This document shows positions 1,509 through 63,002 of a stretch of 64,000 nt of DNA, piece after piece. This DNA is from Rufibacter hautae (GTDB lineage Bacteria; Bacteroidota; Bacteroidia; Cytophagales; Hymenobacteraceae). The position numbers and the translations under genes are program-made. The DNA is taken from positions 1,488,001-1,552,000 of the forward strand of contig NZ_VKKY01000002.1 of NCBI RefSeq assembly GCF_008271695.1, read 5' to 3'. Below the pieces are notes generated by a model. The model saw only the letters and a program-made list of their open reading frames with translations. It made no database searches and was not told where the DNA came from. Each line of letters begins with the position of its first letter. Position 1 is the first letter of the stretch.

Positions 1509-1543
1509 GTTTCAGGGCTGTTTTTGTAAATCGTGCTGAAAAC
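1509..1543. repeat. 36-bp palindromic element, copy 1
   Basis: Starts GTTTCAGGGCTG and ends GCTGAAAAC, 35 nt. It lies 2 nt after the stop of the T9SS protein gene. Confidence 0.75.
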
Positions 1544-1661
1544 CATCTGTGCTTTGATAGCACCTTAAGACAAACCTTTTAAATTTATTAGATAAAATAT
1601 ATATTAGATTGATCGTCCCATAGTAATTCAATATTTCTTCTGCCCCCAACCAAGATTCGCC

Positions 1662-2750
1662 TTGAAAAGTACAGGTAAAGACGCGCCCTTCCTAAGCCAG
1701 CCATCCGCCCAAGCATCATCTTCCAGATTAGAATTCCTTGATTTTCTCCGTTGCATAGCGGCCTCGGCGGTAATGCTGCAGCATGCTCTGGAAAGCAAAT
1801 CACCTGCCTTTGCGGAATTCAGCACCAAGTATTTCCAGTTCGGGGTATTTGGCGTCACCCTCTTTTTCCTGACCAGCGGATTCATCATCCCGGTTTCCAT
1901 TGAAAGGGCCAACTCCATCAAAGCCTTTTGGATCAGCCGCATCTACCGGTTGTTTCCGCTGTACCTGGTCAGCATTCTGGTGACCCTGCTGCTCATTTCC
2001 CTGGGGTGGTTAGAAGGAACGCCACCTACGGCGGCCAGCCTGCTTGCCAATGCGGTGATGCTGGCTAAGTTCTTGGGGCAACCCTTGATCCAGGGACTTT
2101 ACTGGACTTTGAACTTGGAAATGGTTTTCTACCTCTTAGTGACGGGATTGTTCATGGTGGGTCTGCTTCAAAGAAGTGTTTTGTTGGCGATGGGCGCTTT
2201 AGCCGCTGCCCTGCTCCTTGGGGTGGTAGGAACGCAGGTGCTGCACTTTTTTGAAAGTGGCTGGGGCTTGTGTTTTCAATTGGCCACCATGTTTGTGGGC
2301 ACCGTTTACTTCCGGTAAATGACTGGGCAGGTCTCGTTTAAAACATGGGCCGGCATTTTTGTCATTGCCCTTGGCGTGCTACTTACGATCACGTATTTCA
2401 ACCTGTATAACCAGGATGTTCCCGAAGCGTTGGGTACCCGAAGTTTCTGGCCCGTTACCAATGCTTTCCTGGCGGCGTATCTCCTATTTACCATCTGCTT
2501 TTTGCTGCGAGGCAGGTCCTATTTTTCTTCCTTGCTGTTTCTGGGGCGCATCAGTTATTCGCTTTACTTAGTGCAAGCCACGGTGCTGCCGCTGGTGTTG
2601 CCTCACCTGGACCATGTACTGCTTTCCACCGTGGTGGGCCTAGGCACCACCGTGCTGGTCTCCTATTTTACCTTCACTTTTATAGAAAAGCCATTCATCC
2701 ATATAGGCCGAAAGATCGCCCGCAAGAGCAGTGTCTCTGTCCCGCAGTAG
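1662..2750 (+). pseudogene. Acyltransferase-3 family membrane protein gene with an in-frame stop
   Basis: The frame encodes a typical acyltransferase-3 (O-acyltransferase) protein of about 362 codons: a TTG start, an N-terminal FLDFLRCIAASAVMLQHAL carrying the family's conserved Arg/His region, then about ten hydrophobic segments and a positively charged tail. A single TAA at 2316-2318 (codon 219) splits it. Both sides are in the same frame and the homology runs through the break (GTVYFR, stop, MTGQVSFK). CAA (Gln) to TAA is a one-base transition, so a recent nonsense mutation or a sequencing error is likely. The stop is directly followed by ATG, so restart is conceivable, but neither half would hold the complete helix bundle. 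Such proteins acetylate or succinylate surface polysaccharides. Confidence 0.8.
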
Positions 2751-2818
2751 TCCTTCTCTGATGACTGAAGCACAAACCTTATTCTTCCCGAAGACTTGCG
2801 GAATGATGGATACAATTC

Positions 2819-2854
2819 GCTTTAAGAGTCTTTTCCTCAAACCGGGCGCAAAAC
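2819..2854. repeat. 36-bp palindromic element, copy 2
   Basis: Starts GCTTTAAGAGTC and ends GGGCGCAAAAC. It lies in the gap upstream of the ybaB promoter. Confidence 0.65.
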
Positions 2855-2892
2855 AGATGGCGGCGGAGATGTTTCCATTCCTCTAAAACCCT

Positions 2893-2900
2893 TACTTTTG
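2893..2900 (+). promoter_or_regulatory. Bacteroidota -7 box for the ybaB/glycosyltransferase pair
   Basis: TACTTTTG matches TAnnTTTG, 80 nt upstream of the ATG. No convincing -33 TTG is seen at the usual distance. Confidence 0.45.
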
Positions 2901-2980
2901 ATCCCGGAAACAGCGGCGGCAAGTATCTTCTGCCTTTGTTTACCCGTTATGCTCTATAGAACTTACTAAAAGACAAGATT

Positions 2981-3316
2981 ATGTTTGACATGTTCGGGAT
3001 GATGAATAAGGTGAAGGAGATGCAGGCCAAAATGAAGGAGGCCCAGGATAATCTCAAGCACATAAAGGTATCGGCGGAGGCGGGCGGAGGCATGGTGAAA
3101 GCCACAGCCAGCGGCGACCGCAGGTTGCTGAAGGTGGAGTTTGACGAAACCCTCATGAACCCCAATGATAAGGAAATGCTCGCCGATTTGGTGGTAGCCG
3201 CAGTAAACAAAGCCTTGGACGAGGCCGGTGAGCGCGCCAAAGAGGAAATCAAGAAAAACACCGAAGGCATGCTCCCTAACATCCCGGGTTTAGATCTGAG
3301 CAACTTTGGATTATAG
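2981..3316 (+). CDS. YbaB/EbfC family nucleoid-associated protein
   Basis: A 111-residue protein starting MFDMFGMMNKVKEMQAKM. It has the YbaB pattern: an N-terminal amphipathic helix rich in Met, Lys and Glu, a central GGGMVKATASGDRR strand region, a VEFDETLM motif and a C-terminal helix. YbaB proteins are small dimers that bind DNA without strong sequence preference and are usually encoded beside dnaX/recR. Here the downstream partner is a glycosyltransferase whose likely TTG start lies 11 nt inside the ybaB 3' end, which suggests translational coupling. Length is normal for the family. Confidence 0.9.
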   Translation: MFDMFGMMNKVKEMQAKMKEAQDNLKHIKVSAEAGGGMVKATASGDRRLLKVEFDETLMNPNDKEMLADLVVAAVNKALDEAGERAKEEIKKNTEGMLPNIPGLDLSNFGL

Positions 3317-4358
3317 TACGCCCACCGTGGCGGTGGTCATCCTCAACTGGAATGGCCGCCGTTGGTTAGAACAGTTTTTACCCTCGGTGCTGCAGCACAG
3401 TGCCGGGGCCCAGGTAGTGGTGGCCGATAACGGCTCCCAAGATGATTCCCTTCCTTTTCTCCGGCAACACTACCCGCAGGTGCGAACCATCCAGTTACCT
3501 GAAAATTACGGCTTCTGCGAAGGCTACAACCAGGCGCTTAGCCAGGTAGAAGCGACCTACTACGTTCTCCTCAATTCAGACGTGGAGGTAACAGCCAATT
3601 GGCTCTCCCCCATGGTAAATCTGTTGGAGAAGAACCCGCAGATTGCCGCCTGCCAGCCCAAAATCAAATCCTTCCATCAACGGACCCATTTTGAGCACGC
3701 CGGCGCGGCGGGCGGTTTCCTGGATGCTTACGGCTACCCCTTTTGCCGGGGCCGCCTGTTTGACACCCTGGAAGAAGACCGAGGCCAGTATGATGACGTG
3801 CGGCCGGTGTTCTGGGCCACCGGCGCCTGCCTGTTCATCAAGTCCAGCGCCTACTGGCAAGCCGGAGGGTTGGAGAAAAGGTTCTTTGCGCACATGGAGG
3901 AAATTGACCTTTGCTGGCGCTTGCAGAACCTGGGTTATCAGATCTTTTACCAAGGCCTTAGCACCGTGTACCACGTGGGCGGTGGTACTCTGCCCAAGGC
4001 CAATCCTAGAAAGACCTTCCTGAACTTCAGAAACGGCGCGGCGCTGCTCTACAAGAACCTGGCGAAGGAAGAACTGAACAAGATTCTATACACCCGCCTG
4101 GTGCTGGACGGCGTGGCTGCAGCTCAATATCTGCTGAAAGGTCAATTAAAGGAAGTACAAGCCATCTATAAAGCCCACCGCAGTTTCTTCGCTGATAGGA
4201 AGTTCTGGAAAGAGAAACGCAAAGAGACATCCATCCACAAGCCCACAGCGCAACTTACCGGCTGGAGCCAGCAGAGCGTGGTTTGGCAATATTTTATGAA
4301 GGGTAAAAAGGAATTCCGGGCTTTAAACGTCCCAGACAGTGCTACGCTCCCGGCGTAG
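3306..4358 (+). CDS. Glycosyltransferase family 2
   Basis: A 350-residue GT-A protein. VAVVILNWNGRRWLEQFL opens the nucleotide-binding fold, VVADNGSQDDS follows, and LLNSDVEV supplies the DxD-like metal site. FWATGACLFIKSSAYWQAGG and HMEEIDLCWRLQNLGY (the ED acceptor motif) identify the rhamnosyltransferase/WbbL-like group. It probably adds a sugar to a cell-surface glycan on the inner face of the membrane. The TTG start overlaps ybaB by 11 nt; a GTG at about codon 8 is an alternative. The 3' end overlaps the convergent PspC gene by 36 nt, so the two transcripts are antisense there. Confidence 0.88.
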   Translation: MDYSTPTVAVVILNWNGRRWLEQFLPSVLQHSAGAQVVVADNGSQDDSLPFLRQHYPQVRTIQLPENYGFCEGYNQALSQVEATYYVLLNSDVEVTANWLSPMVNLLEKNPQIAACQPKIKSFHQRTHFEHAGAAGGFLDAYGYPFCRGRLFDTLEEDRGQYDDVRPVFWATGACLFIKSSAYWQAGGLEKRFFAHMEEIDLCWRLQNLGYQIFYQGLSTVYHVGGGTLPKANPRKTFLNFRNGAALLYKNLAKEELNKILYTRLVLDGVAAAQYLLKGQLKEVQAIYKAHRSFFADRKFWKEKRKETSIHKPTAQLTGWSQQSVVWQYFMKGKKEFRALNVPDSATLPA

Positions 4359-9358: not shown

Positions 9359-10882
9359 ATGAAATTAATCACAACCATCTATACCGCCATCGGCCTCATA
9401 TTAGCCATGCTTTGCATTGTCACGATAGGGTACATCCAGCAGACCTGGAAGGTGAAGAACAGTATTGACGACGTTCTTTATACTTCCAGTGTCATCAGGG
9501 AAGGTGAGCGCGCCCAGAAACTGATCCTGGACCTGGAAACCGGGCTGCGCGGCTACCTACTGACGGGTCAGCAAGCGTTTCTGGAGCCTTACCGCCGGGG
9601 GAAAACCGAGTTTGAAGTAAGCATGACTCACCTGGACTCACTCACCAGGGCGTACCCTGAGCAGAATGCCCTGGTGAAAGGGATAAAAAAGGATGCCGAT
9701 GCGTGGCTGGGATCTTTTGCCGCCCCACTCCTGGAAAGCAAAGCCCGGGAACGGCTCAGTGCCCAGGACAAGGCCCAGTACGACTCTCTTTTCAACAACA
9801 CCGTGCAATTGGGAATCGGGAAGAGCCTTATGGACAAAGCCCGGGGCCGCTTTGACAAAATCAAGGAAAAGGAAGAGCGCATCAAAGAAGACCGGGTGAA
9901 AGGGTTAAACGCCTCGCTCATCCGGACAAACGAGATTGCCGTGGGCCTTACTGTCTTATCCATTTTGGCTGGTGGGTTTATGGCCTATCTTTTGGGAAAG
10001 ACCATCAAAAGAAGGTTCAAGCGCATGAATGAGCTGGCCCATAGTATTGCCCAAGGCGATTACAGCGTTTCATTGGTAGACAAGCGCAATGATGAGATCA
10101 GCAGTCTTACCCAGTCGTTGAATGTGATGGCCGCCAAACTACAGAACAGTTTCACCCACCTCACCAAGATGAACAAGGAACTGGACCAGTTCGCCTACGT
10201 GGTATCCCATGACCTGAAAGCTCCGCTCAGGGCCATCAACAACCTGGCCGAGTGGATTGGGGAAGACCTGCAGACCCAGGACCCGGACATCATCAAGAAC
10301 CTTTCTATCTTAAGAGGCCGGGTGCACCGGATGGAAAACCTCATCAACGGTATTCTGGCCTACTCCAGGGTAGGGCGGCAGTCTCTGCCCACTTCCCGTT
10401 TCTCGGTGCAGGACCTGTTCAAGGAAACGCTGGAGAACCTGGCGCCTGCGGCCAGTTTTGAGGTAAAAATGCGCACGCCGCTGCCCACCATCACCGGGGA
10501 GCGAACCTTATTTTACCAGGTGCTTTCCAACCTGCTCAGCAATGCCTTCAAGTACCACCATACCCAGAGCGGCCGCGTGGAGGTCAGCGCCAAAGAGTTA
10601 CCTGAGTTTTACCAGTTTGAGGTCAAAGACGACGGGCCCGGCATACCCAAAGAATACCAGACCAAGGTTTTTGGCATTTTCCAGACCATGGAGGCGCGTG
10701 ATGTGAAGGAGAGCACCGGCGTAGGGCTTTCCATTGTGAAGAAGATAGTGGAAGAGAAAGGCGGCCAAATCTGGATTGAATCTGAGAAAGGGCAAGGCAC
10801 CACCTTTGTGTTTACCTGGCCCAAAGAACACGTGACAAGTAAAATCCCTACCCCCTTTTACCATGATGGAGCAAAAGCATAA
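9359..10882 (+). CDS. CHASE3-HAMP sensor histidine kinase
   Basis: 507 residues. A transmembrane helix (about 5-27), a periplasmic helical CHASE3 sensor (LILDLETGLRGYLLTGQQAFL is its hallmark region), a second helix (~197-215), HAMP, then HisKA with His284 in YVVSHDLKAPLRAINNL. HATPase motifs are LLSNAFKYHH (N box), DDGPGIP (G1) and GVGLSIVKKIVEEKGG (G2). This phytochrome-like HisKA type usually signals to Rcp1-type receivers, two of which are encoded downstream. The next kinase gene overlaps its 3' end by 20 nt. The stimulus is unknown. Confidence 0.9.
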   Translation: MKLITTIYTAIGLILAMLCIVTIGYIQQTWKVKNSIDDVLYTSSVIREGERAQKLILDLETGLRGYLLTGQQAFLEPYRRGKTEFEVSMTHLDSLTRAYPEQNALVKGIKKDADAWLGSFAAPLLESKARERLSAQDKAQYDSLFNNTVQLGIGKSLMDKARGRFDKIKEKEERIKEDRVKGLNASLIRTNEIAVGLTVLSILAGGFMAYLLGKTIKRRFKRMNELAHSIAQGDYSVSLVDKRNDEISSLTQSLNVMAAKLQNSFTHLTKMNKELDQFAYVVSHDLKAPLRAINNLAEWIGEDLQTQDPDIIKNLSILRGRVHRMENLINGILAYSRVGRQSLPTSRFSVQDLFKETLENLAPAASFEVKMRTPLPTITGERTLFYQVLSNLLSNAFKYHHTQSGRVEVSAKELPEFYQFEVKDDGPGIPKEYQTKVFGIFQTMEARDVKESTGVGLSIVKKIVEEKGGQIWIESEKGQGTTFVFTWPKEHVTSKIPTPFYHDGAKA

Positions 10883-12599: not shown

Positions 12600-14933
12600 A
12601 TGGAGCCCGCAGTAAAACTTTTGATTGTAGACGACGATGAAGTAGACCGGATGATCATAAAAAGGTCTCTCCGGACCGCCAAGGTAGAAGCTTCCATCAC
12701 CAACGCCGCCCTAGGCATAGAAGCCCTGGAGGCCCTGGAAGAGCAAACCTTTGACTTCATCTTTATTGATTTCATGCTGCCAGACATGAACGGTCTGGAA
12801 CTTCTGCAGCAGATAAGAGAAAAAGGCATTACCACCCCGGTGCAGATTGTCACCTCGCAGGGCGATGAGCGCATTGCCGTGGAAGCCATCAAAACCGGGG
12901 CCTCCGACTACCTGCCCAAGACGCTGCTCACCCCCGAGGGGATTTCCCAGAGCATCAGGAGCGCCATCAGGCTGCACCGGATTGAGCAGGAAAGGCTCCA
13001 GACGCAGGAGCAGCTGATTGGCACCCAGAAGCAACTGGAAACGGTGATCAACGGGGCACCCATTATTCTTTGGGCGGCAAACGAGGACGGCATCATCACC
13101 ATGGCCCGCGGCAAAGGCCTTCACCTCATTGGGAAGGTAGAATCACAGTCTGTAGGCTCCTCTATCTATGAGATTTATGGAGCATACCCCAACTTTCTCA
13201 CCTGCGTCAGGCGCTCCATCCAGGGAAACCAGGCCAAATGCACCATCAACATCAACGAGGTTTGGTTTGATTGCCTTTTCCTTCCCCTGAAAGACGTCCA
13301 CGGAAAACCAAGCGGTGTCATAGGCGTGGCCTACGACATCACCGAAAGGATTCAGATTGAGGAGGAACTCAAAAAGGCCAAAGACGAAGCCCTGAGCATG
13401 GCCCGGGTGAAAGAGCAGTTCTTGGCCAACATGAGCCACGAGATCAGAACGCCCATGAACGGCATCCTGGGTTTGAGCGAGGTGCTGGCCAAAACCCCTA
13501 TGGATGAACATCAGCGGGAATACCTGCAGGGCATCCACACCTCCGCCAACAACCTCATGGTGATTATCAATGACCTGCTGGACTTCTCCAAGATAGAGGC
13601 CGGCAAAATCACCTTTGAGATCATCCCCTTTGACCTGAAACAACTGATCAAACAACTGCTGGATGTGCTGGAGATCAGGGCCAAAGAACGGAAAAACTCC
13701 CTTAAACTGCTCATTGACCAAGACATCCCGGCCATGGTGGAAGGCGATCCGTTCCGGCTGAGCCAAATCTTGAACAACCTTCTGGGCAACGCCATCAAGT
13801 TCACCGAAGGTGGCTCTGTACGGCTCAACGTGGAAGTCATTGGCCAGGAAGAAGACGAACTGCAGCTGGAGTTCACCGTGAAAGACACCGGCATTGGCAT
13901 TCCGGAGGAGAAGCTGCAGACCATCTTTGAGAAATTCACCCAAGGCAGCAATGACACCACCCGCAAGTTTGGCGGCACGGGGCTGGGCCTTTCCATCGCG
14001 AAGGAACTGGTAGAAGCACAGGGCGGCCACATCTCCGTGGAAAGTAAAATGAACGTGGGCAGCACTTTCCGTTTTGTGCTTCCTTTCAGAAAAGTAACCG
14101 GAAAACCGGACCAGTACGCCAGACCCGCGCAGCTATCCACCTACAGCCCCCAACTGCTTCGGCACGCCCGGGTGCTCCTGGCCGAGGACAACGCCGTAAA
14201 CCAGATGCTGGTGACCAAGGTGCTGCGGGACCACGAGGTAGAAGTGACGGTGGTGAACAACGGCCGCGAAGCCCTGGACCTGCTCTCCCAGGAAACGTTT
14301 GACCTGATCTTAATGGACATGCAGATGCCCGAGCTGGATGGGTACGAGGCCATGCAGTACATAAGAGAGCACCTAAGCGCCTGCCGGGAGATTCCCATCA
14401 TTGCCTTGACGGCTCATGCCTCTGAAGGTGAGTTCAAGAAGTGCCTGTCCTCTGGCGCCAATTCCTACATCTCCAAGCCTTTCAAAGCTGAGGAGCTGTT
14501 GCAGGAGATCTCAAAGTTGCTTCAAGCAGGAAGAAAAGAGGAGGAAACCGATCACTCATCGTCCCCGGCTGAGAAGGTGCGCATTGACCTTTCTTACCTG
14601 GAGAACTTCGCGAACGGCAATGTTGAGTTCATGCGCGACATTCTGCAGCTTTTCATTGAGCAGACACCTCATCTAGTGCAGGAATTAACCAGGGCTGTTT
14701 CGCTTTCCAAATGGACCGAGACCAGAACCCTCACCCATAAGATCAAGCCGTCCATTGCGTTAGTGGGCATCCAGGAATTGGAGGAACTGAACAACACCAT
14801 TGAACAATCGGCCTTGAACCGCACCAACACCGAGCAGATTCCGGCGCTGGTGCAGCAGATGGTGCTGTTGGTGAACCGGTCTATCCAGCAATTGAAACAG
14901 GAACTGGCGAGTTTACAGGGGAAATTGGTGTAA
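12600..14933 (+). CDS. Hybrid kinase REC-PAS-HisKA-HATPase-REC-Hpt
   Basis: 777 residues, soluble. Domains in order: receiver 1 (Asp57 in FIDFMLPDMNG), a PAS domain (~145-255), HisKA (His280 in ANMSHEIRTPMNGILG), HATPase (DTGIGIPEEKL, GTGLGLSIAKELVE), receiver 2 (Asp573 in LILMDMQMPELDGYEA) and a C-terminal Hpt with probable His713 (THKIKPSIALVG). It thus holds a complete phosphorelay in one chain. The N-terminal receiver could take phosphate from the upstream kinases, making this the integrator of the cluster. No DNA-binding output is encoded nearby. Confidence 0.9.
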   Translation: MEPAVKLLIVDDDEVDRMIIKRSLRTAKVEASITNAALGIEALEALEEQTFDFIFIDFMLPDMNGLELLQQIREKGITTPVQIVTSQGDERIAVEAIKTGASDYLPKTLLTPEGISQSIRSAIRLHRIEQERLQTQEQLIGTQKQLETVINGAPIILWAANEDGIITMARGKGLHLIGKVESQSVGSSIYEIYGAYPNFLTCVRRSIQGNQAKCTININEVWFDCLFLPLKDVHGKPSGVIGVAYDITERIQIEEELKKAKDEALSMARVKEQFLANMSHEIRTPMNGILGLSEVLAKTPMDEHQREYLQGIHTSANNLMVIINDLLDFSKIEAGKITFEIIPFDLKQLIKQLLDVLEIRAKERKNSLKLLIDQDIPAMVEGDPFRLSQILNNLLGNAIKFTEGGSVRLNVEVIGQEEDELQLEFTVKDTGIGIPEEKLQTIFEKFTQGSNDTTRKFGGTGLGLSIAKELVEAQGGHISVESKMNVGSTFRFVLPFRKVTGKPDQYARPAQLSTYSPQLLRHARVLLAEDNAVNQMLVTKVLRDHEVEVTVVNNGREALDLLSQETFDLILMDMQMPELDGYEAMQYIREHLSACREIPIIALTAHASEGEFKKCLSSGANSYISKPFKAEELLQEISKLLQAGRKEEETDHSSSPAEKVRIDLSYLENFANGNVEFMRDILQLFIEQTPHLVQELTRAVSLSKWTETRTLTHKIKPSIALVGIQELEELNNTIEQSALNRTNTEQIPALVQQMVLLVNRSIQQLKQELASLQGKLV

Positions 14934-14946
14934 TCTACCTTACCCT

Positions 14947-14982
14947 GTTTCGGGGCTGTTTTCTCAAAAATAGCCTTGGAAT
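14947..14982. repeat. 36-bp palindromic element, copy 6 (right arm degenerate)
   Basis: The left arm GTTTCGGGGCTGTTTT is typical; the right arm is eroded and runs up to the next start codon. It begins 13 nt after the hybrid kinase stop. Confidence 0.6.
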
Positions 14983-17076: not shown

Positions 17077-17112
17077 ATTTTAGGGCTGTTTTGGGCAAAC
17101 TAGACTTAAAAC
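17077..17112. repeat. 36-bp palindromic element, copy 8
   Basis: Contains TTTTAGGGCTGTTTT and ends GACTTAAAAC. It starts 1 nt after the DUF1264 stop and ends 4 nt before the stop of the convergent GH8 gene, so it is the whole intergenic gap. Confidence 0.78.
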
Positions 17113-21494: not shown

Positions 21495-21530
21495 GTTTCA
21501 GGGCTGTTTCACCAAAATCAGCCCTGAAAC
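21495..21530. repeat. 36-bp palindromic element, copy 11 (near-perfect)
   Basis: GTTTCAGGGCTGTTT at the left is an almost exact inverse of AAATCAGCCCTGAAAC at the right. It is one of the two best dyads in the window. Confidence 0.85.
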
Positions 21531-22955: not shown

Positions 22956-23000
22956 GCCGAGGCTGTTTTCAGCTTGTATTTGGGAAATCGGCCCCAAAAC
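22956..23000. repeat. 36-bp palindromic element, copy 12 (expanded centre)
   Basis: The arms GCCGAGGCTGTTTT and GAAATCGGCCCCAAAAC are typical, but the centre is ~8 nt longer than usual. It ends 14 nt before the flippase start. Confidence 0.65.
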
Positions 23001-27373: not shown

Positions 27374-27392
27374 AGAAAATCAGGCTAAAAAC
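27357..27392. repeat. 36-bp palindromic element, copy 13 (overlaps a start codon)
   Basis: On the minus strand it starts GTTTTTAGCCTGATTTTC, continues through the ATG and ends in the first codons (GCGCGTAAAC). Its length is exactly 36 nt. Confidence 0.55.
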
Positions 27393-34580: not shown

Positions 34581-34582
34581 TG

Positions 34583-37406: not shown

Positions 37407-37442
37407 GTTTAGCACTTATTTTTAAGAAAACGATGAAGAAAC
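37407..37442. repeat. 36-bp palindromic element, copy 21 (between stop and start)
   Basis: Starts GTTTAGCAC one base after the guaA stop and ends GAAGAAAC inside the first codons of the next gene. It spans the entire 26-nt gap plus ten coding bases. Confidence 0.6.
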
Positions 37443-40851: not shown

Positions 40852-41014
40852 CTAAAGATTAAAGTTGGTTGTAAATTTAAGATAGGAACTTACTGCCAAA
40901 TGCAAGGGCTGAGTTACTAAAAATATACTATTTGGCTAATCACCTGCTTTAATAGTTCTTCCTTCTGATTTAACATTTTAGCTATGTTTTATAAAAATCA
41001 AGTATAAAGGCTGG

Positions 41015-42777: not shown

Positions 42778-42813
42778 GCTTTAAGGCTCTTTTTCTGAAA
42801 TCAGGTCTAAAGC
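42778..42813. repeat. 36-bp palindromic element, copy 23 (matched ends)
   Basis: GCTTTAAGGCTC at the left faces AGGTCTAAAGC at the right. The usual GTTT/AAAC ends have become GCTTT/AAAGC on both sides together. Confidence 0.82.
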
Positions 42814-45095: not shown

Positions 45096-45214
45096 CCTCA
45101 TCTTATGGCTGATAAAGCCCCACTTTTTAGAATAAGTTATAGCCCGTCACCTCCTTTAGCACCGGCCTGTTTAGCTTAGCTTTTCTTCTTCGTTTTTTCA
45201 AAATCACCATCAAA

Positions 45215-47185
45215 ATGGGAAATCCCAGACTTTCCTTTTGCTCCACCTTTCTGCGGTTCACCTTCCTTATTATTCTGGTGGCTACCCCTTCTCTAGTTTT
45301 CGGGCAAGTGCGTTTGCCAAAGGTTTTCAGCGACCACATGGTCTTGCAGCGGGGCCGGGCTATTCCGGTTTGGGGAACCGCTCAGCCGGGGAAGCAGATT
45401 TCTGTGGAATTTGGTGGTCAGAAGATCAAGACAACTACCGGTCAGGATGGTAAATGGATGGTGCATCTGCCCCAGATGAAGGCGGGCGGTCCGCACCTGA
45501 TGCAGGTGTCTGAAGAAGATAAAACCAAACCGGTGATTTTGTTTAAAGACGTGCTGATTGGCGATGTGTGGCTGGCCTCGAGGCAATCCAACATGGAATG
45601 GCAGGTACAGCAGGCCATGAATGCCGAAACGGAAATCAAGAACGCCCATTACCCTAACATCCGGTTCTTCAACGTACCCCATGACAAGAAAACCAACGTC
45701 CAAACCGATGTGCTGGCCGGCTCGTGGCAACCTATTGACTCCCTTACCGTGAAAACCGCCTCAGCGGTGGCCTACTATTTTGCCCGGGAACTGCAGGCTG
45801 ACTTGAAGGTGCCCATTGGTATTCTCCAGTCTACCTGGGGAGGTACCCCGGTGGAAGCCTGGATCAGCCGGGAACAGTTACTCTCCTCCCCCATCACGCA
45901 GCGCACCGTCTTGCAGAATGACACGGTGACCGAAAAGCACTTCCTCAAAGACAGCCTGGATTTGGTTCGGTTCTGGGACATCGTGTACAACCCCAAAAAC
46001 AAAACCGATAAAACCATCCCGAACCCCAACTACAACGATGCCAAGTGGCCCGAGTTGGTGATGCCCGCTACCCTCAAAAACCTGAACTTGCCCGGCTACG
46101 AAGGCATGATGTGGCTCCGCAAGACCATTCACCTACCCCAAAATCTGTTCGGCAAAGAAGTAACCCTCCACTTCGGCCACCCCGAGATGAACTATTCTCT
46201 CTACTTCAACGGGAAAGAAATTGCTAAAAACGTCTGGAACGCCAAACCCACGCACCACTACCGTATTCCGGCCAATTTGGTAAAACAAGGCAAAAACGTG
46301 ATTGCAGTCAGGATGGCGTTTCTGTGGACAGGCGGAGGCTTCAACCCTCCCGCCGAAGAGATGTACTTGACAGACGGAACCGCCAAACTAAGCCTGGCCG
46401 GAGGTTGGAAATACCGGAAAGACCTGGAGCCTACCCTTCCTACCATCAAAAACTATCACCAATTCCCAACTTACCTCTTTAACGCCATGATCAACCCGGT
46501 GATCCCTTACGGCATAAACGGGGTGATTTGGTACCAGGGCGAGAACAACGTGTCGGCCCCTGTAGACTACCGCACCTTGTTTCCCATGATGATCAACGAT
46601 TGGCGGATACGATGGCAGCAGGGGTATTTCCCGTTTCTGTACGTGCAGCTGGCCAACTACATGAAGCGGCAACCGGAACCCTCGCAAAGTGATTGGGCCA
46701 CCTTGCGCGAAGCCCAAACCCTTGCTTTGGCCCAACCCAACACCGCTATGGCAACCATCATTGACCTGGGCGAGGCAGACAACATCCACCCCAAAAACAA
46801 GCAAGAGGTAGGCCGAAGACTTGCCTTGCTAGCCAAAAAACTAGTCTACAAAAAAGCAGTGCAGGCCTCCGGTCCCATGTACCAGAACCACCAAATAGAA
46901 GGAAATCAAATCAGAATAAAGTTCTCTGAGACTGGTGCCGGATTGGCCACCCGGGGTAATGGAAAGCCTACAGGCTTTGCCATAGCCGGAAGCAATCAGA
47001 AGTTCTATTGGGCTGATGCCGTGATTGAGGGGAACACGGTAAAGGTAAGCTCTGCGCAAGTGAAGAATCCAGTGGCAGTGCGCTATGCCTGGGCCGATAA
47101 CCCCGAGTGCAACCTAATCAACAAAGATGGTTTGCCGGCAAATCCCTTCCGTACTGATGATTGGAATGCGATTGTAGCAAAATAA
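45215..47185 (+). CDS. Sialate O-acetylesterase family protein with G-to-R change at the nucleophile
   Basis: 656 residues with a signal peptide ending VFGQ. VRLPKVFSDHMVLQRGRAIP and IPVWGTAQPGKQISVEF are the usual N-terminal Ig-like region. Motif I is GDVWLASRQSNMEWQ; the family normally reads S-G-Q-S-N-M, so Gly123 is Arg here, next to Ser125. AVAYYFARELQ, STWGGTPVEAW, WYQGENN and DNIHPKNKQEVGRRLA (catalytic His region) are intact. It would remove acetyl groups from sugars in hemicellulose or pectin. The Arg codon AGG is one transition from GGG. Confidence 0.85.
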   Translation: MGNPRLSFCSTFLRFTFLIILVATPSLVFGQVRLPKVFSDHMVLQRGRAIPVWGTAQPGKQISVEFGGQKIKTTTGQDGKWMVHLPQMKAGGPHLMQVSEEDKTKPVILFKDVLIGDVWLASRQSNMEWQVQQAMNAETEIKNAHYPNIRFFNVPHDKKTNVQTDVLAGSWQPIDSLTVKTASAVAYYFARELQADLKVPIGILQSTWGGTPVEAWISREQLLSSPITQRTVLQNDTVTEKHFLKDSLDLVRFWDIVYNPKNKTDKTIPNPNYNDAKWPELVMPATLKNLNLPGYEGMMWLRKTIHLPQNLFGKEVTLHFGHPEMNYSLYFNGKEIAKNVWNAKPTHHYRIPANLVKQGKNVIAVRMAFLWTGGGFNPPAEEMYLTDGTAKLSLAGGWKYRKDLEPTLPTIKNYHQFPTYLFNAMINPVIPYGINGVIWYQGENNVSAPVDYRTLFPMMINDWRIRWQQGYFPFLYVQLANYMKRQPEPSQSDWATLREAQTLALAQPNTAMATIIDLGEADNIHPKNKQEVGRRLALLAKKLVYKKAVQASGPMYQNHQIEGNQIRIKFSETGAGLATRGNGKPTGFAIAGSNQKFYWADAVIEGNTVKVSSAQVKNPVAVRYAWADNPECNLINKDGLPANPFRTDDWNAIVAK

Positions 47186-48316: not shown

Positions 48317-48347
48317 CAAGCCTCAACCCACCAATTAGGTACGCTTT

Positions 48348-48382
48348 GTTTTATGCTGTTTTACTTAAAACGCCCGGTAAAC
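48348..48382. repeat. 36-bp palindromic element, copy 26
   Basis: Starts GTTTTATGCTGTTTTAC and ends GCCCGGTAAAC. Its right half forms part of the hairpin at 48367-48412. Confidence 0.6.
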
Positions 48383-50192: not shown

Positions 50193-50288
50193 GTTCTTTC
50201 ACGCCACCGGCGCTTCGTTCAAAGCACAAAGGTAAAATGTTTTTCTGAGTTCTAGAGATAGAAGCATCTGCTTTTCCATATCGGCGCA

Positions 50289-50323
50289 GTTTAGAGCCTT
50301 TTTCTTGAAAACTGCTCATAAAC
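50289..50323. repeat. 36-bp palindromic element, copy 28
   Basis: Starts GTTTAGAGCC and ends CTGCTCATAAAC. Confidence 0.65.
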
Positions 50324-52992: not shown

Positions 52993-53271
52993 AATAGAAG
53001 AAGTACTAAAAGTGTGCTGCTCCTATTACGATTTCCCTGAGAAAAGGAAAACGGTTTATAACTTATTTAACTCGATGCAAATATATCCTCTTTAAAACCA
53101 GAGATTTAAAATTTATCTACTTAAAAAAATAGCACTAAACTAATTGGCACAAGGCCTAAAAATAGCCAAGTTGGACGTAAAAATTGACATAAACATGAAT
53201 GTAAATCTCAGTCTTGAGCCACGAAGCAACTTTACTTTATCATCTCTGTCCTCCTTTAATACAGCGCCATT
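52993..53271. other. A+T-rich gap upstream of the prodomain-like lipoprotein
   Basis: Contains the -7 box TATATTTG at 53085-53078 (minus strand). Otherwise no gene or RNA recognised. A GGCCTAAAAATAGCC word near 53155 may be an eroded palindrome. Confidence 0.5.
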
Positions 53272-53307
53272 GTTTTGCGTGCTTTTTTAAAAAAAAGGCT
53301 GAAAAGG
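53272..53307. repeat. 36-bp palindromic element, copy 31
   Basis: Starts GTTTTGCGTGC and ends AAGGCTGAAAAGG, directly touching the menE stop codon. Confidence 0.6.
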
Positions 53308-54604: not shown

Positions 54605-55429
54605 TCAAGGGAATTTAGGATACTTAGAGAAGTCTGGTTTGCGTTTCTCCAGGAACGCATTCTTGCCCTCTTTGGCCTCGTCTGAGAGGTAGTAAAGCAA
54701 GGTGGCGTCTCCGGCCAACTGCTGCACCCCGGCCTGTCCGTCCAACTCGGCGTTGAAAGAGGCTTTGAGCATGCGCAGGGCCAATGGGCTTTTCTCCAGG
54801 ATTTTTCCGCACCACTCCACAGTGGTTTCCTCCAGTTGATCGAGCGGCACTACTTTGTTCACCAGCCCCATGTCCAACGCCTCTTGCGCGTTGTATTGGT
54901 CGCACAGGTACCAGATCTCGCGGGCCTTCTTTTGCCCTACAATGCGGGCCAGGTAAGATGCCCCGAAACCACCGTCAAAGGAGCCTACTTTTGGGCCAGT
55001 TTGGCCAAAACGGGCATTATCCGCGGCAATGGAAAGGTCGCATACCACATGCAGCACATGGCCCCCCCCAATGGCCCAACCCGCCACCATGGCAATCACC
55101 GGCTTAGGGATGCGGCGGATCTGCATCTGCAGGTCCAGCACGTTCAAGCGGGGCACGGTGTCTTCGCCAATATAGCCGCCGTGGCCGCGCACGCTCTGGT
55201 CACCGCCCGAGCAGAAAGCCTTGCCGCCTTCACCGGTGAAAATAATCACCCCAATGTCTGGGTTGTCGCGGCAGATGTTCATGGCATCAATCATCTCAGC
55301 TACTGTGCGGGGCGTGAACGCATTGTGCACGTGCGGCCGGTTGATGCTGATTTTAGCGATGCCATTATAGAATTGAAAAAGTATCTCTTGGTATTCTTTA
55401 AGCGTAGTCCAGTTGAATTTACTTTGCAT
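54605..55429 (-). CDS. menB: 1,4-Dihydroxy-2-naphthoyl-CoA synthase
   Basis: 274 residues from ATG 55429 ([20 protein letters not shown]). Crotonase fold with [59 protein letters not shown] and [17 protein letters not shown], all standard for MenB. It closes the naphthoquinone ring from OSB-CoA. A TACCTTTA word ~45 nt upstream may be its -7 box. Confidence 0.95.
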
Positions 55430-56848: not shown

Positions 56849-58561
56849 TCAAAGTTGTATGCTGGAATTTACCTGTTTTCGGTAGTCTTCAAAAACTGCA
56901 AAATTCTCCGGGCTGCTCGTTTCCACTTCCAATAATTGCGGACCCGCCAAATGGTTTAAAAAATTGGACAGCGCCGCTTCCAGCGAAGCAGCGTCGGTCA
57001 CCCGCACATAGGTCAGCCCCATGTCTTCGGCAGTTTTCTGGGCCGTCAGGCGCTGGTCGGTTTCAAAGAAGGGTCTCAGTTCTGGTTGGCTGCGCGGCCC
57101 CTCTATCATCCTGAAGATGCCACCCCCGTGGTTGTTCAGCACCACAATGCGCAGGTTCTGGGGAAGGTAGTTGTGCCACAAGGCATTGCGGTCATACAGG
57201 AAAGCCATGTCGCCGGTGAGCAGGGTCACCAGTTTATCCGTGCTCAACGCGGAACCCACCGCGGTGCTGGTACTGCCGTCAATGCCGCTGGTGCCCCGGT
57301 TGGCAAACACCTCCACCCCTTCTTTTTCAGCTACGCCGATGAGGTTGGCGTACCGCACGCTCATGCTATTGGCCAGGTGCAGCAGACTGTTCTGGGGCAA
57401 GCTCCTGAGTACCTGGTGGCACACCTGGAATTCCGAAAAAGGGCTGTTTTCCTGAAAACCCTCCAAAACCGATTTACCCTGCATTTCCAGCTCATGCCAG
57501 GCATTGGTAAATGCTGGGGAAACCTGTAGGCTAGCTTCTTTTTGATTTACCTGAGCGAAAAAATCCTGGGGAGTAGTCCGGATGATGCGGGTGAGCGACT
57601 GGAAAGTGTCCGCGACCATGCCGGCCGGTTGCACATGCCAATGTTGTAGGTGCTGCTGCTTGCGCAGGAACAATTTCAGGTTTTTAGAAATCAGTGATTT
57701 ATGGAAAGTAATCAATAAATCAGCTTGAAGTGCCTCGGTGGTGTGCAGGTGCTTGGCGCCCAGGAATACATCGTGGAAATTGATGGTCTCCCCGGCCACT
57801 TGCTGGTTGCTGATGGTATCGGCGATGAAGACGGCTCCGGTAGCGCGGCAGAACCTCACAATCTCGTCGTGCAAAGCCTCATCCCTCCTGCCCTGACCGG
57901 CCACTACCAGTACTCTCCGGTACTGCTTGAGCTCTGTTTTCAGCTGTTCCCATACCTGCGCTGGCAACCCGTACCCTGAAGGTACCTCCTCAATGACCTT
58001 CACGTCTCTTGAATAGGCAAACTCCTCATCTGGTTCGGGGTAAAAGGGTTCCCGCAAGGGGATATTCACGTGCACCGGACCCTCCGGAAAAGCTACAGCT
58101 TCATTCAAGGCTTCATTGAGCAACCTAGCAGCATACCACTGGGAATCAACATGATTCGTATCCACCGGAAAATCAAAGCTTCGCTTCACGTGACCACCAT
58201 AGATGTTAGCCTGCCGGATGGTCTGCCCGTCCAGTTGGTCAATCCATTCGGGCGGCCTATCGGCGGTAAGCACCAGCAGCGGGATGTTCTGGTAGAAGGC
58301 CTCGGCCACGGCAGGCGCGTAGTTGTAGGCCGCGGTCCCCGAGGTGCAGACCAGCACCACCGGCTTGCCCGTTTGCTGCGCGATGCCCAAGCCAATGAAA
58401 GCGGCACTTCGCTCATCGGGCACGGTGCGCACCCGCAGCTGCGGATGCCGGGCAAAGGCCAGCGTCAAGGGCGCGCACCGGGAGCCCGGCGACAACACTA
58501 TATCTTCCACTCCCTTGCGGGCGCAGATCTCAGCAATATCTATAACGGCTTGTAAAATCAT
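56849..58561 (-). CDS. menD: SEPHCHC synthase MenD
   Basis: 570 residues. VEDIVLSPGSRCAPLTLAFA and VPDERSAAFIGLGIAQQTG (ThDP Glu) open it; LTADRPPEWIDQLDGQTIRQ follows; the C-terminal ThDP site is TLLTGDMAFLYDRNALWHN with VVLNNHGGGIFRMI. It joins 2-oxoglutarate and isochorismate. The start overlaps the menF stop by 4 nt (ATGA), so MenF and MenD are translationally coupled. A possible palindrome copy lies inside the coding sequence at 57434-57469. Confidence 0.94.
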   Translation of the reverse strand: MILQAVIDIAEICARKGVEDIVLSPGSRCAPLTLAFARHPQLRVRTVPDERSAAFIGLGIAQQTGKPVVLVCTSGTAAYNYAPAVAEAFYQNIPLLVLTADRPPEWIDQLDGQTIRQANIYGGHVKRSFDFPVDTNHVDSQWYAARLLNEALNEAVAFPEGPVHVNIPLREPFYPEPDEEFAYSRDVKVIEEVPSGYGLPAQVWEQLKTELKQYRRVLVVAGQGRRDEALHDEIVRFCRATGAVFIADTISNQQVAGETINFHDVFLGAKHLHTTEALQADLLITFHKSLISKNLKLFLRKQQHLQHWHVQPAGMVADTFQSLTRIIRTTPQDFFAQVNQKEASLQVSPAFTNAWHELEMQGKSVLEGFQENSPFSEFQVCHQVLRSLPQNSLLHLANSMSVRYANLIGVAEKEGVEVFANRGTSGIDGSTSTAVGSALSTDKLVTLLTGDMAFLYDRNALWHNYLPQNLRIVVLNNHGGGIFRMIEGPRSQPELRPFFETDQRLTAQKTAEDMGLTYVRVTDAASLEAALSNFLNHLAGPQLLEVETSSPENFAVFEDYRKQVNSSIQL

Positions 58562-59778
58562 GATTCAGACGCTTGAAAAAGACGGAGCACGGTTTGCATC
58601 TTGAGCTCGGTTTCCACCCACTCCTTGGCGGGCACTGAGTCGGCAGTCATGCCGGCGCCGGCGTAGGCCGTGACGGTGTCCTGCCCCAGTTCCACGCACC
58701 GCAGGTTCACAAACAGGTTCGTTTCCTGCCCCAGTTGCACCGGGCCCATAAACCCGCTGTAGTAACGACGGTCATGTACTTCCAGTTGACCTATCATCTG
58801 CAGCGCCGCAGCCTTGGGCATGCCGCCTACCGCCGAGGTGGGGTGCAGCAACTCCAGCATCTGGGTGCCCAGTTTGGGGAAGCCTACTTCGTCCATGGCC
58901 GCGCTGAAATCGGTGCGCAGGTGCAGCAGGTTCCCGGCGATGATGGTGCGGGGTCCCATCTCCACATACTCGCGCAGGCGCAGGTGCCTGAAACAACTCA
59001 CCACGTAGCGCTGCACCAAAGCCTGCTCCTCAATCTCCTTCTGCCGCCAGATGGCATCGGCGGGTGTCAATTTATCCGTGATAGGCTGGGTGCCGGCTAA
59101 GGCCACGGTGCGGAATACTCTATGGCGGTCAATCTGCACCAAGAGCTCGGGCGTAGCCCCCAACCAGGTACCCAGACCCGGAATGGCCACCAAGGACACG
59201 AAAGCCGTGGGGTACAGCCTAGTCAGTTGGGCGAAAGCGGTGAGCAAGTCGAAACCGTTGAAAAGCGGCAGCGTTTTGGTGCGGGACAATACCACTTTCT
59301 CCAGGCAGCCAGCCTGCATGGCTTTCACCGCCGTGGCCACGGTCTGCTCAAAAGCATCGCGGGCGATGGACTTCACCGGTCCGGCGGGGTGGCTGGGCCA
59401 AAGCAATTCCGCATCCTGCTTTTCGTCTGTTTTCTCAAAATAGGCCCAGAAACAGGAAGGCAACTCGGTTTCTCCCTTCTCAGGGGAAGCATCGGCTTTG
59501 CCGGAGAAATAAAGGTCAGCGGGCAGAAAGGTGTTGGGCGTAGACGAGGTGGCCTGGAAGGGGCAGAAGGCGAAGCCGCGTTGCGGGCCTTCCATGGGTG
59601 GCAGGTTCTGCTGCACCTGGGCAGACACCAGTACCTGCACCTCTTTGGTGCCAGGCAAGCGCCAGAGGGCTACCGGCAAGTTGCTGGCCAAAGCTGCCCT
59701 GAAAATTCTAAAAGCAGTTTCCTCAGAAAGAGAATCAGCAGAAGTTAGGGGAATATGGGTGGTGTTGGTTTGGGGCAT
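58558..59778 (-). CDS. menF: Isochorismate synthase MenF
   Basis: 406 residues from ATG 59778 (MPQTNTTHIPLTSADSL). The chorismate-binding domain holds KVVLSRTKTLPL, WLGATPELLVQ, VALAGTQPI, SAVGGMPKAAALQMI and YAGAGMTADSVPAKEWVETE. It isomerises chorismate to isochorismate, the entry step to menaquinone. It lies 7 nt after menI and overlaps menD, so menI-menF-menD form an operon. A possible palindrome copy lies in the variable N-terminal part at 59418-59453. Confidence 0.9.
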   Translation of the reverse strand: MPQTNTTHIPLTSADSLSEETAFRIFRAALASNLPVALWRLPGTKEVQVLVSAQVQQNLPPMEGPQRGFAFCPFQATSSTPNTFLPADLYFSGKADASPEKGETELPSCFWAYFEKTDEKQDAELLWPSHPAGPVKSIARDAFEQTVATAVKAMQAGCLEKVVLSRTKTLPLFNGFDLLTAFAQLTRLYPTAFVSLVAIPGLGTWLGATPELLVQIDRHRVFRTVALAGTQPITDKLTPADAIWRQKEIEEQALVQRYVVSCFRHLRLREYVEMGPRTIIAGNLLHLRTDFSAAMDEVGFPKLGTQMLELLHPTSAVGGMPKAAALQMIGQLEVHDRRYYSGFMGPVQLGQETNLFVNLRCVELGQDTVTAYAGAGMTADSVPAKEWVETELKMQTVLRLFQASES

Positions 59779-60891: not shown

Positions 60892-60927
60892 GTTTTTAGG
60901 CCTAATTTTTAAAAACAAGCCAAAAAC
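60892..60927. repeat. 36-bp palindromic element, copy 32
   Basis: Starts GTTTTTAGGCCTAATTTTT and ends ACAAGCCAAAAAC. It lies 19 nt after the phosphatase stop. Confidence 0.75.
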
Positions 60928-60984: not shown

Positions 60985-61009
60985 AGGCCTTAAAACCGAG
61001 CGAAAAACT

Positions 61010-62740: not shown

Positions 62741-62790
62741 TTTAGTTTCTAGTGATTAGTTGTTCGTGATTAGAAAACGAACTTGTTATA

Positions 62791-62830
62791 AGAAAGAGCC
62801 GGTGGAGAGATCCATTGGCTCTTTCTGTTT
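62791..62830 (+). terminator. Terminator after pdhC
   Basis: AGAAAGAGCC pairs with GGCTCTTTCT and is followed by GTTTT. Confidence 0.8.
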
Positions 62831-62862
62831 TGCGCCTGATTATAAGAAAAGAGCCTCTAAAC
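62827..62862. repeat. 36-bp palindromic element, copy 33
   Basis: Starts GTTTTGCGCCTG and ends GAGCCTCTAAAC; it begins in the T-run of the pdhC terminator. Confidence 0.75.
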
Positions 62863-62884
62863 GTATTTGGCCTTCCATCTTTTG

Positions 62885-62910
62885 GTAGGGGCAATCCCTT
62901 GTGGTTGCCC
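62885..62910. repeat. GGGCAACC palindromic repeat, copy B (inverted)
   Basis: GTAGGGGCAATCCCTTG then TGGTTGCCC, the exact inverse of copies A and C. Confidence 0.85.
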
Positions 62911-62929
62911 TAACGGTTGTAGAAGCAAA

Positions 62930-62955
62930 GGGCAACCACAAGGGATTGCCCCTAC
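62930..62955. repeat. GGGCAACC palindromic repeat, copy C
   Basis: GGGCAACCACAAGGG then ATTGCCCCTAC. With copy B it makes a perfect 26-bp inverted repeat around a 19-nt spacer. Confidence 0.85.
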
Positions 62956-62966
62956 ACTCCAAAGGC

Positions 62967-63002
62967 GGTTAAGGCATGTTTTTACAAAAAGGTTCGCAAA
63001 AC
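62967..63002. repeat. 36-bp palindromic element, copy 34
   Basis: Starts GGTTAAGGCATGTTTTTAC and ends GGTTCGCAAAAC. Confidence 0.65.

What the first reader, a model, noticed from the sequence alone, without database searches (positions are those of the whole stretch)
1509..63002. A dense family of ~36-bp intergenic palindromes, 34 copies in 64 kb
Reading the gaps shows the same structure again and again: GTTT, two variable bases, a GGCC/GGGC core, TGTTTT, a short centre, then the mirror image ending in AAAC. 26 or more copies are exactly 36 nt, while the bases differ widely, so length and dyad are kept rather than sequence. Density is about one per 1.9 kb and roughly one per gene gap. I do not recognise it as a described repeat. 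Candidates are a REP/RAYT-like element, a widespread protein-binding site such as for a nucleoid protein, or an RNA 3'-end element.
Basis: seen in the sequence. Interest (0 to 1): 0.87.

Follow-up and report, generated by a model that had tools for sequence, protein, structure and literature searches.

The report
Genus-wide 36-bp symmetric gene-end site
Rufibacter genomes carry the same 36-base two-fold-symmetric DNA site many hundreds to thousands of times, often once per gap at the end of a gene and sometimes inside genes, most likely as the docking site of an unknown genus-specific DNA-binding protein.

Summary
The repeat is real. A symmetric 36-bp matrix finds 46 sites (>=18 bits) in the window and 267 in 464 kb, random sequence none, so about 3,300 per genome. 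All 16 genus (Rufibacter) genomes have it; 188 other family genomes have 0-2 hits each. It is mostly not a hairpin family: halves vary independently in the own genome, single half-sites are at chance, spacing is nearly fixed. TTT/AAA blocks, 11 bp apart in each half, are constrained; the bases between drift like flanks. Many sites keep their place between species (16 of 16 upstream of the PDH E2 gene), with turnover elsewhere. Tandem and convergent gaps hold exactly one site more often than chance allows. Sites in genes exceed synonymous shuffles 20- to 40-fold. RAYT transposases do not track it. Best reading: dsDNA site of an unidentified genus-specific dimeric protein marking gene ends; an uptake-signal-like sequence is the main rival. 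The protein was not found; no extra HU or ParB paralog was seen.

The parts
823..858 (.). 36-bp site, 30.1 bits, inside gene
1509..1544 (.). 36-bp site, 25.5 bits, 2 bp after the stop codon of 112-1506
2819..2854 (.). 36-bp site, 27.9 bits
6459..6494 (.). 36-bp site, 34.4 bits, 5 bp after a stop codon
7644..7679 (.). 36-bp site, 30.4 bits
8142..8177 (.). 36-bp site, 34.1 bits, within a longer inverted repeat 8132-8187 between convergent genes
9976..10011 (.). 36-bp site, 20.6 bits, inside gene
14071..14106 (.). 36-bp site, 27.1 bits, inside a histidine kinase gene
14947..14982 (.). 36-bp site, 29.5 bits
16214..16249 (.). 36-bp site, 34.3 bits, overlapping the end of the hairpin 16172-16219
17077..17112 (.). 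36-bp site, 32.9 bits, 1 bp after a stop codon
18509..18544 (.). 36-bp site, 22.4 bits
20085..20120 (.). 36-bp site, 30.6 bits, divergent gap
21495..21530 (.). 36-bp site, 33.8 bits, near-perfect palindrome
22965..23000 (.). 36-bp site, 35.1 bits
27112..27147 (.). 36-bp site, 32.6 bits, inside a glycosyltransferase gene
27357..27392 (.). 36-bp site, 20.1 bits, partly overlapping a gene end
29138..29173 (.). 36-bp site, 33.8 bits
31541..31576 (.). 36-bp site, 32.6 bits, convergent gap
31938..31973 (.). 36-bp site, 18.5 bits, inside gene
32264..32299 (.). 36-bp site, 18.8 bits, inside gene
33256..33291 (.). 36-bp site, 35.7 bits
34369..34404 (.). 36-bp site, 32.4 bits, in the gap that holds the SRP RNA gene
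34616..34651 (.). 36-bp site, 35.9 bits, in the SRP RNA gap
34871..34906 (.). 36-bp site, 35.8 bits, palindrome with perfectly paired arms
35734..35769 (.). 36-bp site, 20.5 bits, divergent gap; the G133 and G141 gaps also hold a site
37407..37442 (.). 36-bp site, 24.5 bits, near a gene start (start codon uncertain)
40204..40239 (.). 36-bp site, 19.0 bits, inside gene
40975..41010 (.). 36-bp site, 22.2 bits
42152..42187 (.). 36-bp site, 23.8 bits, inside gene
42778..42813 (.). 36-bp site, 33.8 bits, 2 bp after a stop codon
43685..43720 (.). 36-bp site, 21.4 bits; the G133 and G141 gaps also hold a site
45181..45216 (.). 36-bp site, 21.3 bits
46263..46298 (.). 36-bp site, 19.2 bits, inside gene
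48347..48382 (.). 36-bp site, 23.3 bits
48409..48444 (.). 36-bp site, 33.5 bits; the G133, G141 and G131 gaps also hold sites
50288..50323 (.). 36-bp site, 27.3 bits
50594..50629 (.). 36-bp site, 23.0 bits
51914..51949 (.). 36-bp site, 32.0 bits; the G133, G131 and G136 gaps also hold sites
53271..53306 (.). 36-bp site, 23.9 bits, same place in 10 species (own included)
54987..55022 (.). 36-bp site, 18.4 bits, inside gene, 2 species
57435..57470 (.). 36-bp site, 20.1 bits, inside a TPP-enzyme gene, same place in 12 species
59418..59453 (.). 36-bp site, 31.0 bits, inside a chorismate-binding enzyme gene, same place in 12 species
60892..60927 (.). 36-bp site, 34.6 bits, upstream of the PDH E2 gene, same place in 16 of 16 Rufibacter genomes
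62827..62862 (.). 36-bp site, 32.8 bits, abutting the hairpin 62791-62826, same place in 9 species
62967..63002 (.). 36-bp site, 27.7 bits, same place in 6 species

Best explanation
Each copy is a double-stranded, sequence-specific binding site for one unidentified Rufibacter-specific protein that acts as a symmetric dimer (or with two DNA-binding units per half). Shown: two half-sites of 16-18 bp face each other at nearly fixed spacing; in each half two T-tract boxes (GTTTT at 1-5 and 12-16) lie 11 bp, about one helical turn, apart; only these blocks are strongly constrained; half-sites alone are not enriched; many sites hold their place across the genus, also inside coding sequence; at gene 3' ends one per gap is favoured. 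Inferred: the protein contacts adjacent turns on one DNA face, and its bound copies mark the ends of genes or transcription units genome-wide as an architectural boundary (insulator against read-through or supercoil spread). It coexists with ordinary intrinsic terminators; some terminator-like hairpins have been built on the site's own symmetry.
For: Arms: among 267 own-genome sites only pair 6:31 (z 3.3) rises above z 2 for Watson-Crick pairing; outside the hairpin class 9.34 pairs observed, 9.30 expected, z 0.6 (285 sites). Half-sites outside full sites 758 against 796 in a second-order Markov control (>=8 bits) and 289 against 306 (>=10 bits); spacing nearly rigid. Core columns 3, 4, 14-16: identity 0.80 over 16 sites and 92 ortholog pairs, flanks 0.54, remaining columns 0.47, with no hit required in the ortholog. 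16 of 16 orthologs keep the PDH E2 upstream site. Genic sites 56 against 1.4 +- 0.9 in 10 synonymous shuffles, and in 148 well-scored genes 32 against 1.5 +- 0.8 in 20 shuffles. Exactly-one-site gaps, own genome: tandem 94 against 63.9 +- 6.1, convergent 37 against 18.7 +- 3.5, none of 1000 simulations as high. In-gene site 59418 held in 12 of 16 species while neighbouring codons change. Genus restriction.
Against: No binding protein was found: HU and ParB genes are essentially single-copy in Rufibacter as in sister genera, and HU of G144 and G010 differ at 3 of 89 residues. 29 of 585 sites are extended hairpins with covarying arms; with hairpins included, columns 6-7 covary in G135 (38 sites) and G137 (10 sites), z 2.0 to 3.4, so some copies act, or also act, as RNA or ssDNA structure. 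Of 22 site positions mapped in 18 kb, 6 occur in a single species, so turnover exists. Sites inside genes fit poorly with a transcription roadblock. At 59418 four species without a scored site (G138, G140, G142, G144) still encode a partly similar peptide, so protein constraint may help keep it. Divergent gaps show no one-per-gap signal (20 against 16.9 +- 3.2). The promoter association is weak: p 0.018 in one of five bins, uncorrected. Gene calls are home-made.
Confidence: 0.6

Rival explanations
1. A DNA uptake signal of a new, dyadic kind: a competence receptor prefers DNA with the site, and transformation spreads sites by molecular drive. Position bias then only reflects where coding and promoter constraint is weakest.
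For: Many hundreds to thousands of copies in one genus, species dialects (G144 changes the inner box only), some copies paired into terminator-like hairpins, sites in genes, 1 site per 20 kb on each of two smaller contigs. Neisseriaceae DUS show dialects, intragenic copies and terminator-like inverted pairs, and one genome has 1294 overlapping dyad pairs (PMC3630211, passages). Genic sites keep away from intergenic ones (66 sites, median 1028 against 775 bp, p 0.016).
Against: Single half-sites are not enriched, whereas known uptake signals work as single copies (recall). The one-per-gap signal is at gene ends and not significant in divergent gaps. Sites crowd the stop codon (87 of 455 at 0-9 bp against 39.8 expected). 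16 of 16 conservation at one place.
Confidence: 0.17
2. A transcript 3'-end element: a hairpin that terminates transcription or protects mRNA.
For: 29 of 585 sites are extended hairpins, 28 of them in tandem or convergent gaps. The gap at 68518 (window scale, in L183) shows paired arms with compensatory change in most of 13 aligned species. Sites lie near stop codons. In the own genome, gaps with a site have more terminator-like hairpins than gaps without (convergent 0.46 of 76 against 0.19 of 21, tandem 0.33 of 98 against 0.23 of 65).
Against: No covariation in the other own-genome sites. 0 of 108 genic and 1 of 68 divergent sites are hairpins, although such sites are also conserved. Sister genera without the site have similar terminator frequencies (Pontibacter 0.55 and 0.26, Hymenobacter 0.63 and 0.29). 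No Rfam family matches the sites.
Confidence: 0.1
3. A decaying mobile repeat (REP or MITE) spread by RAYT transposases.
For: 36-nt palindromic consensus; convergent > tandem > divergent density (4.27, 3.03, 1.43 per kb); Y1_Tnp genes in 15 of 16 Rufibacter genomes; a Bacteroidetes RAYT subclass is described with atypical repeats (PMC6006769, section 25); two RAYT loci are site-rich (L157 7 sites, L145 5).
Against: Uneven constraint by column, rigid dyad without arm complementarity in most copies, genic sites maintained while codons change, RAYTs in 38 of 46 sister-genus genomes and none in G142, 56 sites in 24 RAYT loci (2.3 each) against 1.9 around other genes of similar length, with no constant flanking pattern and none in two loci.
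Confidence: 0.06
4. A preferred site of a type II topoisomerase or another housekeeping enzyme whose specificity changed in this genus.
For: Two-fold symmetry around a variable 4-bp centre, and location at gene ends where supercoils collect (recalled analogy to gyrase at E. coli BIMEs).
Against: Four sharply conserved blocks are more specific than any topoisomerase preference I know (recall); sites also in divergent gaps and genes.
Confidence: 0.05

Closest known systems
Neisseriaceae DUS / Pasteurellaceae USS uptake sequences
   Same: Thousands of copies, lineage-restricted, dialects, intra- and intergenic, often arranged as terminator-like inverted pairs; a dyad arrangement in Simonsiella muelleri (PMC3630211, passages)
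   Different: Here a 36-bp obligate dyad with degenerate interior; half-sites not enriched; one per gap favoured at gene ends; uptake untested
REP/BIME elements with RAYT (TnpAREP)
   Same: 20-40 bp palindromic consensus, mostly downstream of genes, sometimes in genes (PMC3733652, abstract and passages)
   Different: No unpaired GTAG/CGTC foot in the consensus, no stem complementarity in most copies, no RAYT association, maintenance in place
HIP1 of cyanobacteria
   Same: Highly iterated lineage-specific palindrome (PMC4390886, start of abstract in a listing)
   Different: HIP1 is a compact 8-mer linked to methyltransferases; this is a 36-bp gapped dyad at gene ends
Nucleoid-associated protein and insulator sites (Fis, EspR, Lsr2; ParB/Noc)
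   Same: Many chromosomal sites for an abundant symmetric protein; the central GTTTT-N4-AAAAC has the spacing of parS (recall)
   Different: Those motifs are looser or far rarer (recall); no extra HU or ParB gene seen in Rufibacter

Membership tests
REP/RAYT elements | Imperfect hairpin: the arms of one copy are complementary | tested here: not met
   285 own-genome sites outside the hairpin class: 9.34 pairs observed, 9.30 expected; met by 29 of 585 sites in ten species
REP/RAYT elements | GTAG/GTGG or CGTC tetranucleotide at the foot | tested here: not met
   Species consensus sequences begin GTTT and end AAAC; criterion from PMC3733652 and PMC6006769 (passages). PMC6006769 says subclass 2.6, mostly Bacteroidetes, has atypical structures without it
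REP/RAYT elements | Cognate RAYT gene, flanked by the repeats, tracking the family | tested here: not met
   38 of 46 sister-genus genomes have Y1_Tnp without the site; G142 has the site without a Y1_Tnp match; no constant arrangement in the 24 of 30 loci where the gene was located
DNA uptake sequences (DUS/USS) | Over-representation of a short core working as a single copy (recall) | tested here: not met
   Half-sites outside full sites are at chance
DNA uptake sequences (DUS/USS) | Many copies, lineage dialects, in genes and in gaps | tested here: met
DNA uptake sequences (DUS/USS) | Raises uptake of DNA in transformation | not testable with these tools
   needs an experiment
Intrinsic terminator / RNA 3' element | Conserved stem plus downstream U-tract at gene ends only | tested here: not met
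   No covariation in most own-genome copies, sites in genes and divergent gaps; met in part by the hairpin minority
DNABII (HU/IHF/TF1-type) site | A DNABII protein special to the genus | tested here: not met
   One strong HU match per genome in each of 50 genomes; extra matches are weak and also occur in sister genera (PF18291)
DNABII (HU/IHF/TF1-type) site | ~35-bp wrapped footprint with contacts near +-4 and +-15 bp (recalled) | tested here: inconclusive
   The blocks lie at +-2.5 to 4.5 and +-13.5 to 15.5 bp, compatible only
ParB/Noc site | ParB-family paralog in the genus | tested here: not met
   One HTH_ParB match in each of the 11 Rufibacter genomes among the 50 searched
Sequence-specific symmetric dsDNA protein site (general) | Rigid dyad, independent halves, conserved contact blocks | tested here: met
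Sequence-specific symmetric dsDNA protein site (general) | A cognate protein | not testable with these tools

The most novel reading that the evidence does not exclude
Rufibacter has a chromatin-like boundary code: one abundant, genus-specific dimer bound at about 3,000 36-bp sites, one at most gene ends, which delimits transcription or supercoil domains gene by gene. Selection for it is strong enough to write the site into protein-coding sequence and to keep many copies at the same place across species while flanks turn over. I know of no described bacterial architectural protein with so many high-information sites placed by gene ends.
Probability: 0.35. Interest if true: 0.9.

Novelty: new variant of a known kind. 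Interest (0 to 1): 0.8.

Why it matters
If right, a bacterial genus has invested in one long, symmetric, sequence-specific site at most gene ends. That would make two open questions directly testable by one pull-down and one ChIP-seq: whether bacteria have true insulators between transcription units, and how a genome acquires thousands of sites at the base of one genus. If it turns out to be an uptake signal, it would be a dyadic one in Bacteroidota. Sites inside genes offer a case of a DNA signal that may shape protein sequence. It also warns that a 36-bp palindromic consensus near gene ends need not be a REP or a terminator.

Tried and rejected
Hairpin or RNA element: rejected for most copies by lack of covariation in the own genome. 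The pooled value for the other nine species (271 sites, z 7.6) is above chance; I put it down to a mixture of species dialects. The within-species test (639 sites, z -3.0) agrees, but it dropped sites with >=14 pairs, which biases it downward. Per-species values with hairpins included show excess pairing at columns 6-7 in G135 and G137. RAYT/REP. Terminator replacement. The same geometry in other genera: mostly near control level; outliers G204 (132 against 37), G306 (97 against 17), G329 (41 against 8), G260 (596 against 300), G425 (78 against 31) and G461 (78 against 28) were not resolved; three small contigs of G204 (13 kb, one reading as N) held no site, which decides nothing. De novo dyads in sister genera: none like this one, but orthologous coding repeats confound that test. 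HU and ParB paralogs; two scripts to extract HU proteins failed, so only two HU sequences were compared. Regular spacing as the main rule: only weak.

Caveats on counts: gene calls come from a home-made hexamer gene finder. The weight matrix was trained on the same genome it counts, hence the Markov, reversed and synonymous controls. The matrix of the own genome under-counts dialects such as G144. In one search, 62 of 207 hits of the relatives could not be mapped and were dropped. Column identities required a hit in the ortholog and are circular for the core; one search repeats them without that rule. The orthologous PDH E2 regions of 15 species are not independent. In some searches (and in the pool that sampled) about 17.7 kb of G134 was counted twice, because L024 and L180 are the same contig. 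One search sampled at most 260 gene ends per pool.

Full report
WHERE. The window lies in a 5.84-Mb genome of the genus Rufibacter (Hymenobacteraceae, Bacteroidota). The best named relative of its PDH E2 gene (Pfam 2-oxoacid_dh; the gene name is my reading) is R. psychrotolerans at 83%. That record's contig has the same length (205,074) as contig 33 of same-genus genome G134, so I take genus g1 to be Rufibacter.

A symmetric 36-column weight matrix, trained on 464 kb of the own genome, finds 286 sites >=16 bits and 267 >=18 bits, against none in a first-order Markov control. The window has 46 sites >=18 bits. Scaled by length this is about 3,300 per genome (inference). A consensus pattern with up to 3 mismatches gives 212 and 194 hits on the two strands and none read backwards.

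ANATOMY. The consensus is GTTTTnGGSCTGTTTTYNNRAAAACAGSCCnAAAAC. The T blocks at columns 3-4 and 14-16, and their mirror A blocks, are 85-95% conserved, the other columns 30-70%. So each half has two T boxes 11 bp apart, and the halves face each other. Half-sites away from full sites are at chance (758 against 796 in a second-order Markov control at >=8 bits), and half-sites pair at nearly fixed spacing.

MOSTLY NOT A HAIRPIN FAMILY. If arms had to pair in RNA or single-stranded DNA, they would covary. Among 267 own-genome sites only pair 6:31 exceeds its shuffled Watson-Crick expectation clearly (z 3.3). Outside the hairpin class, paired bases are 9.34 against 9.30 expected (285 sites). A minority, 29 of 585 sites in ten species, are extended hairpins: 28 in tandem or convergent gaps, none of 108 genic sites, 1 of 68 divergent ones. 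In one such gap (68518 on the window scale, in L183) the stem changes with compensation in most of 13 species. I read these as terminators built on the site. Against a clean split: with hairpins included, columns 6-7 covary in G135 and G137, and the pooled non-hairpin sites of nine other species show excess pairing (z 7.6), which I attribute to mixed dialects; the within-species test (z -3.0) removed well-paired sites and so leans low.

GENUS RESTRICTION AND DIALECTS. Of 204 family genomes, all 16 Rufibacter have the pattern, and 7 of the 188 others have one or two hits. The geometry alone (TTT-8-TTT-4-AAA-8-AAA, no mismatch) occurs 206-1927 times in each of 16 Rufibacter genomes against 4-25 for the reversed pattern, and near control level in most of the 390 genomes of the order that were searched, 8 of them Rufibacter (exceptions are named under Tried and rejected). 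Of 80 named loci around the PDH E2 gene, only R. psychrotolerans has several sites (9); the other 79 have none or one at >=16 bits. The consensus drifts by species; G144 uses CATTT as inner box but keeps the TTT blocks. Two smaller contigs of the own genome carry 1 site per 20 kb each, against about 0.55 per kb overall; a 7.5-kb contig has 3.

PLACED AT GENE ENDS, ONE PER GAP. Of 267 sites, 127 lie in tandem gaps, 47 in convergent gaps, 27 in divergent gaps, 63 in genes and 3 at edges; densities are 3.03, 4.27, 1.43 and 0.16 per kb. Tandem gaps with exactly one site number 94 of 215 against 63.9 +- 6.1 in random placement, convergent gaps 37 of 59 against 18.7 +- 3.5, divergent gaps 20 of 58 against 16.9 +- 3.2 (not significant). 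The other 15 species show the same (189 against 127.5; 62 against 29.7; 38 against 31.9, the last not significant). Still, 102 of 215 tandem and 16 of 59 convergent own-genome gaps have no site at this threshold. Sites start 0-9 bp after a stop codon in 87 of 455 cases against 39.8 expected, and 9 against 39 start 1-10 bp before it. Terminator-like hairpins coexist with sites and are about as frequent as in sister genera (own genome with site: convergent 0.46, tandem 0.33; Pontibacter 0.55, 0.26; Hymenobacter 0.63, 0.29). Gaps of 120-180 bp with a promoter-like sequence have the site in 16 of 18 cases, without one in 77 of 132 (p 0.018, one of five bins, uncorrected).

KEPT IN PLACE, ALSO INSIDE GENES. 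The site upstream of the PDH E2 gene lies between the previous stop codon and a conserved promoter-like stretch in 16 of 16 species. Of 22 site positions mapped in that 18-kb region, 7 are shared by 9 or more species and 6 are seen in one only. Over 16 sites and 92 ortholog pairs, with no hit required in the ortholog, core columns are 0.80 identical, flanks 0.54, other columns 0.47. In predicted genes 56 sites stand against 1.4 +- 0.9 in synonymous shuffles; restricted to 148 well-scored genes, 32 against 1.5 +- 0.8. The site at 59418 lies in a chorismate-binding enzyme gene, N-terminal to its Pfam domain (PF00425 at residues 140-393), and is present in 12 of 16 species while neighbouring codons and residues change. 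Rufibacter proteins read about FWA.F.KT..KQ there, and none of 13 aligned sister-genus homologs does. Four Rufibacter species without a scored site (G138, G140, G142, G144) keep a partly similar peptide, so I say the DNA site probably, not certainly, shaped it.

WHAT IT IS. A two-fold-symmetric dsDNA recognition site with independent halves is what the data show. The protein is inferred and was not found. DNABII geometry would fit (recall), but Rufibacter has the same single strong HU gene as its sisters. The centre has parS spacing (recall), but there is one ParB match per Rufibacter genome searched. RAYT transposases neither track it nor are regularly flanked by it. The closest described phenomenon is the DUS/USS class (PMC3630211, passages), which shares copy number, dialects and hairpin pairing. 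The boundary function is my preferred inference from one-per-gap placement.

LITERATURE. Searches for Bacteroidetes intergenic palindromes, Rufibacter palindromes, bacterial insulators, uptake-sequence dialects, REP/RAYT in Bacteroidetes, highly iterated palindromes and Hymenobacteraceae motifs (capped listings seen, the last a very loose search) listed nothing that describes this family. Papers read in part: PMC3733652 and PMC3630211 (passages), PMC6006769 (passages and section 25). PMC4390886 was seen only in a listing.

Noticed in passing
62885-62955: A 27-nt perfect inverted repeat starting GTAGGGGC and ending GCCCCTAC, like the 'double foot' GTAG REPs described in PMC6006769 (passages). 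The scan of 504 kb of the own genome found 4 copies (8 both-strand matches). It lies between two of the 36-bp sites but is a separate family.
   Followed up: partly
34483-34586 (-): Small SRP RNA gene (Rfam RF04183) in a 706-bp gap that holds three 36-bp sites.
   Followed up: no
L001, L002, L140-L167: Zero to six RAYT-like Y1_Tnp genes per Rufibacter genome; those located have [NS]H.H and Y[ILV]H.NP motifs resembling TnpAREP subclass 2.6 of PMC6006769; their own repeats were not identified. L157 holds 7 of the 36-bp sites in 3.2 kb.
   Followed up: partly
G306, G329, G425, G461: Genomes of other families in the order where the TTT/AAA geometry exceeds its control two- to six-fold; in G306 several listed hits share a TTTTGCCCAAA-type repeat, in G329 several are near-identical copies.
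   Followed up: no
112-1506: Protein with fibronectin type III and a CHU_C type IX secretion signal.
   Followed up: no
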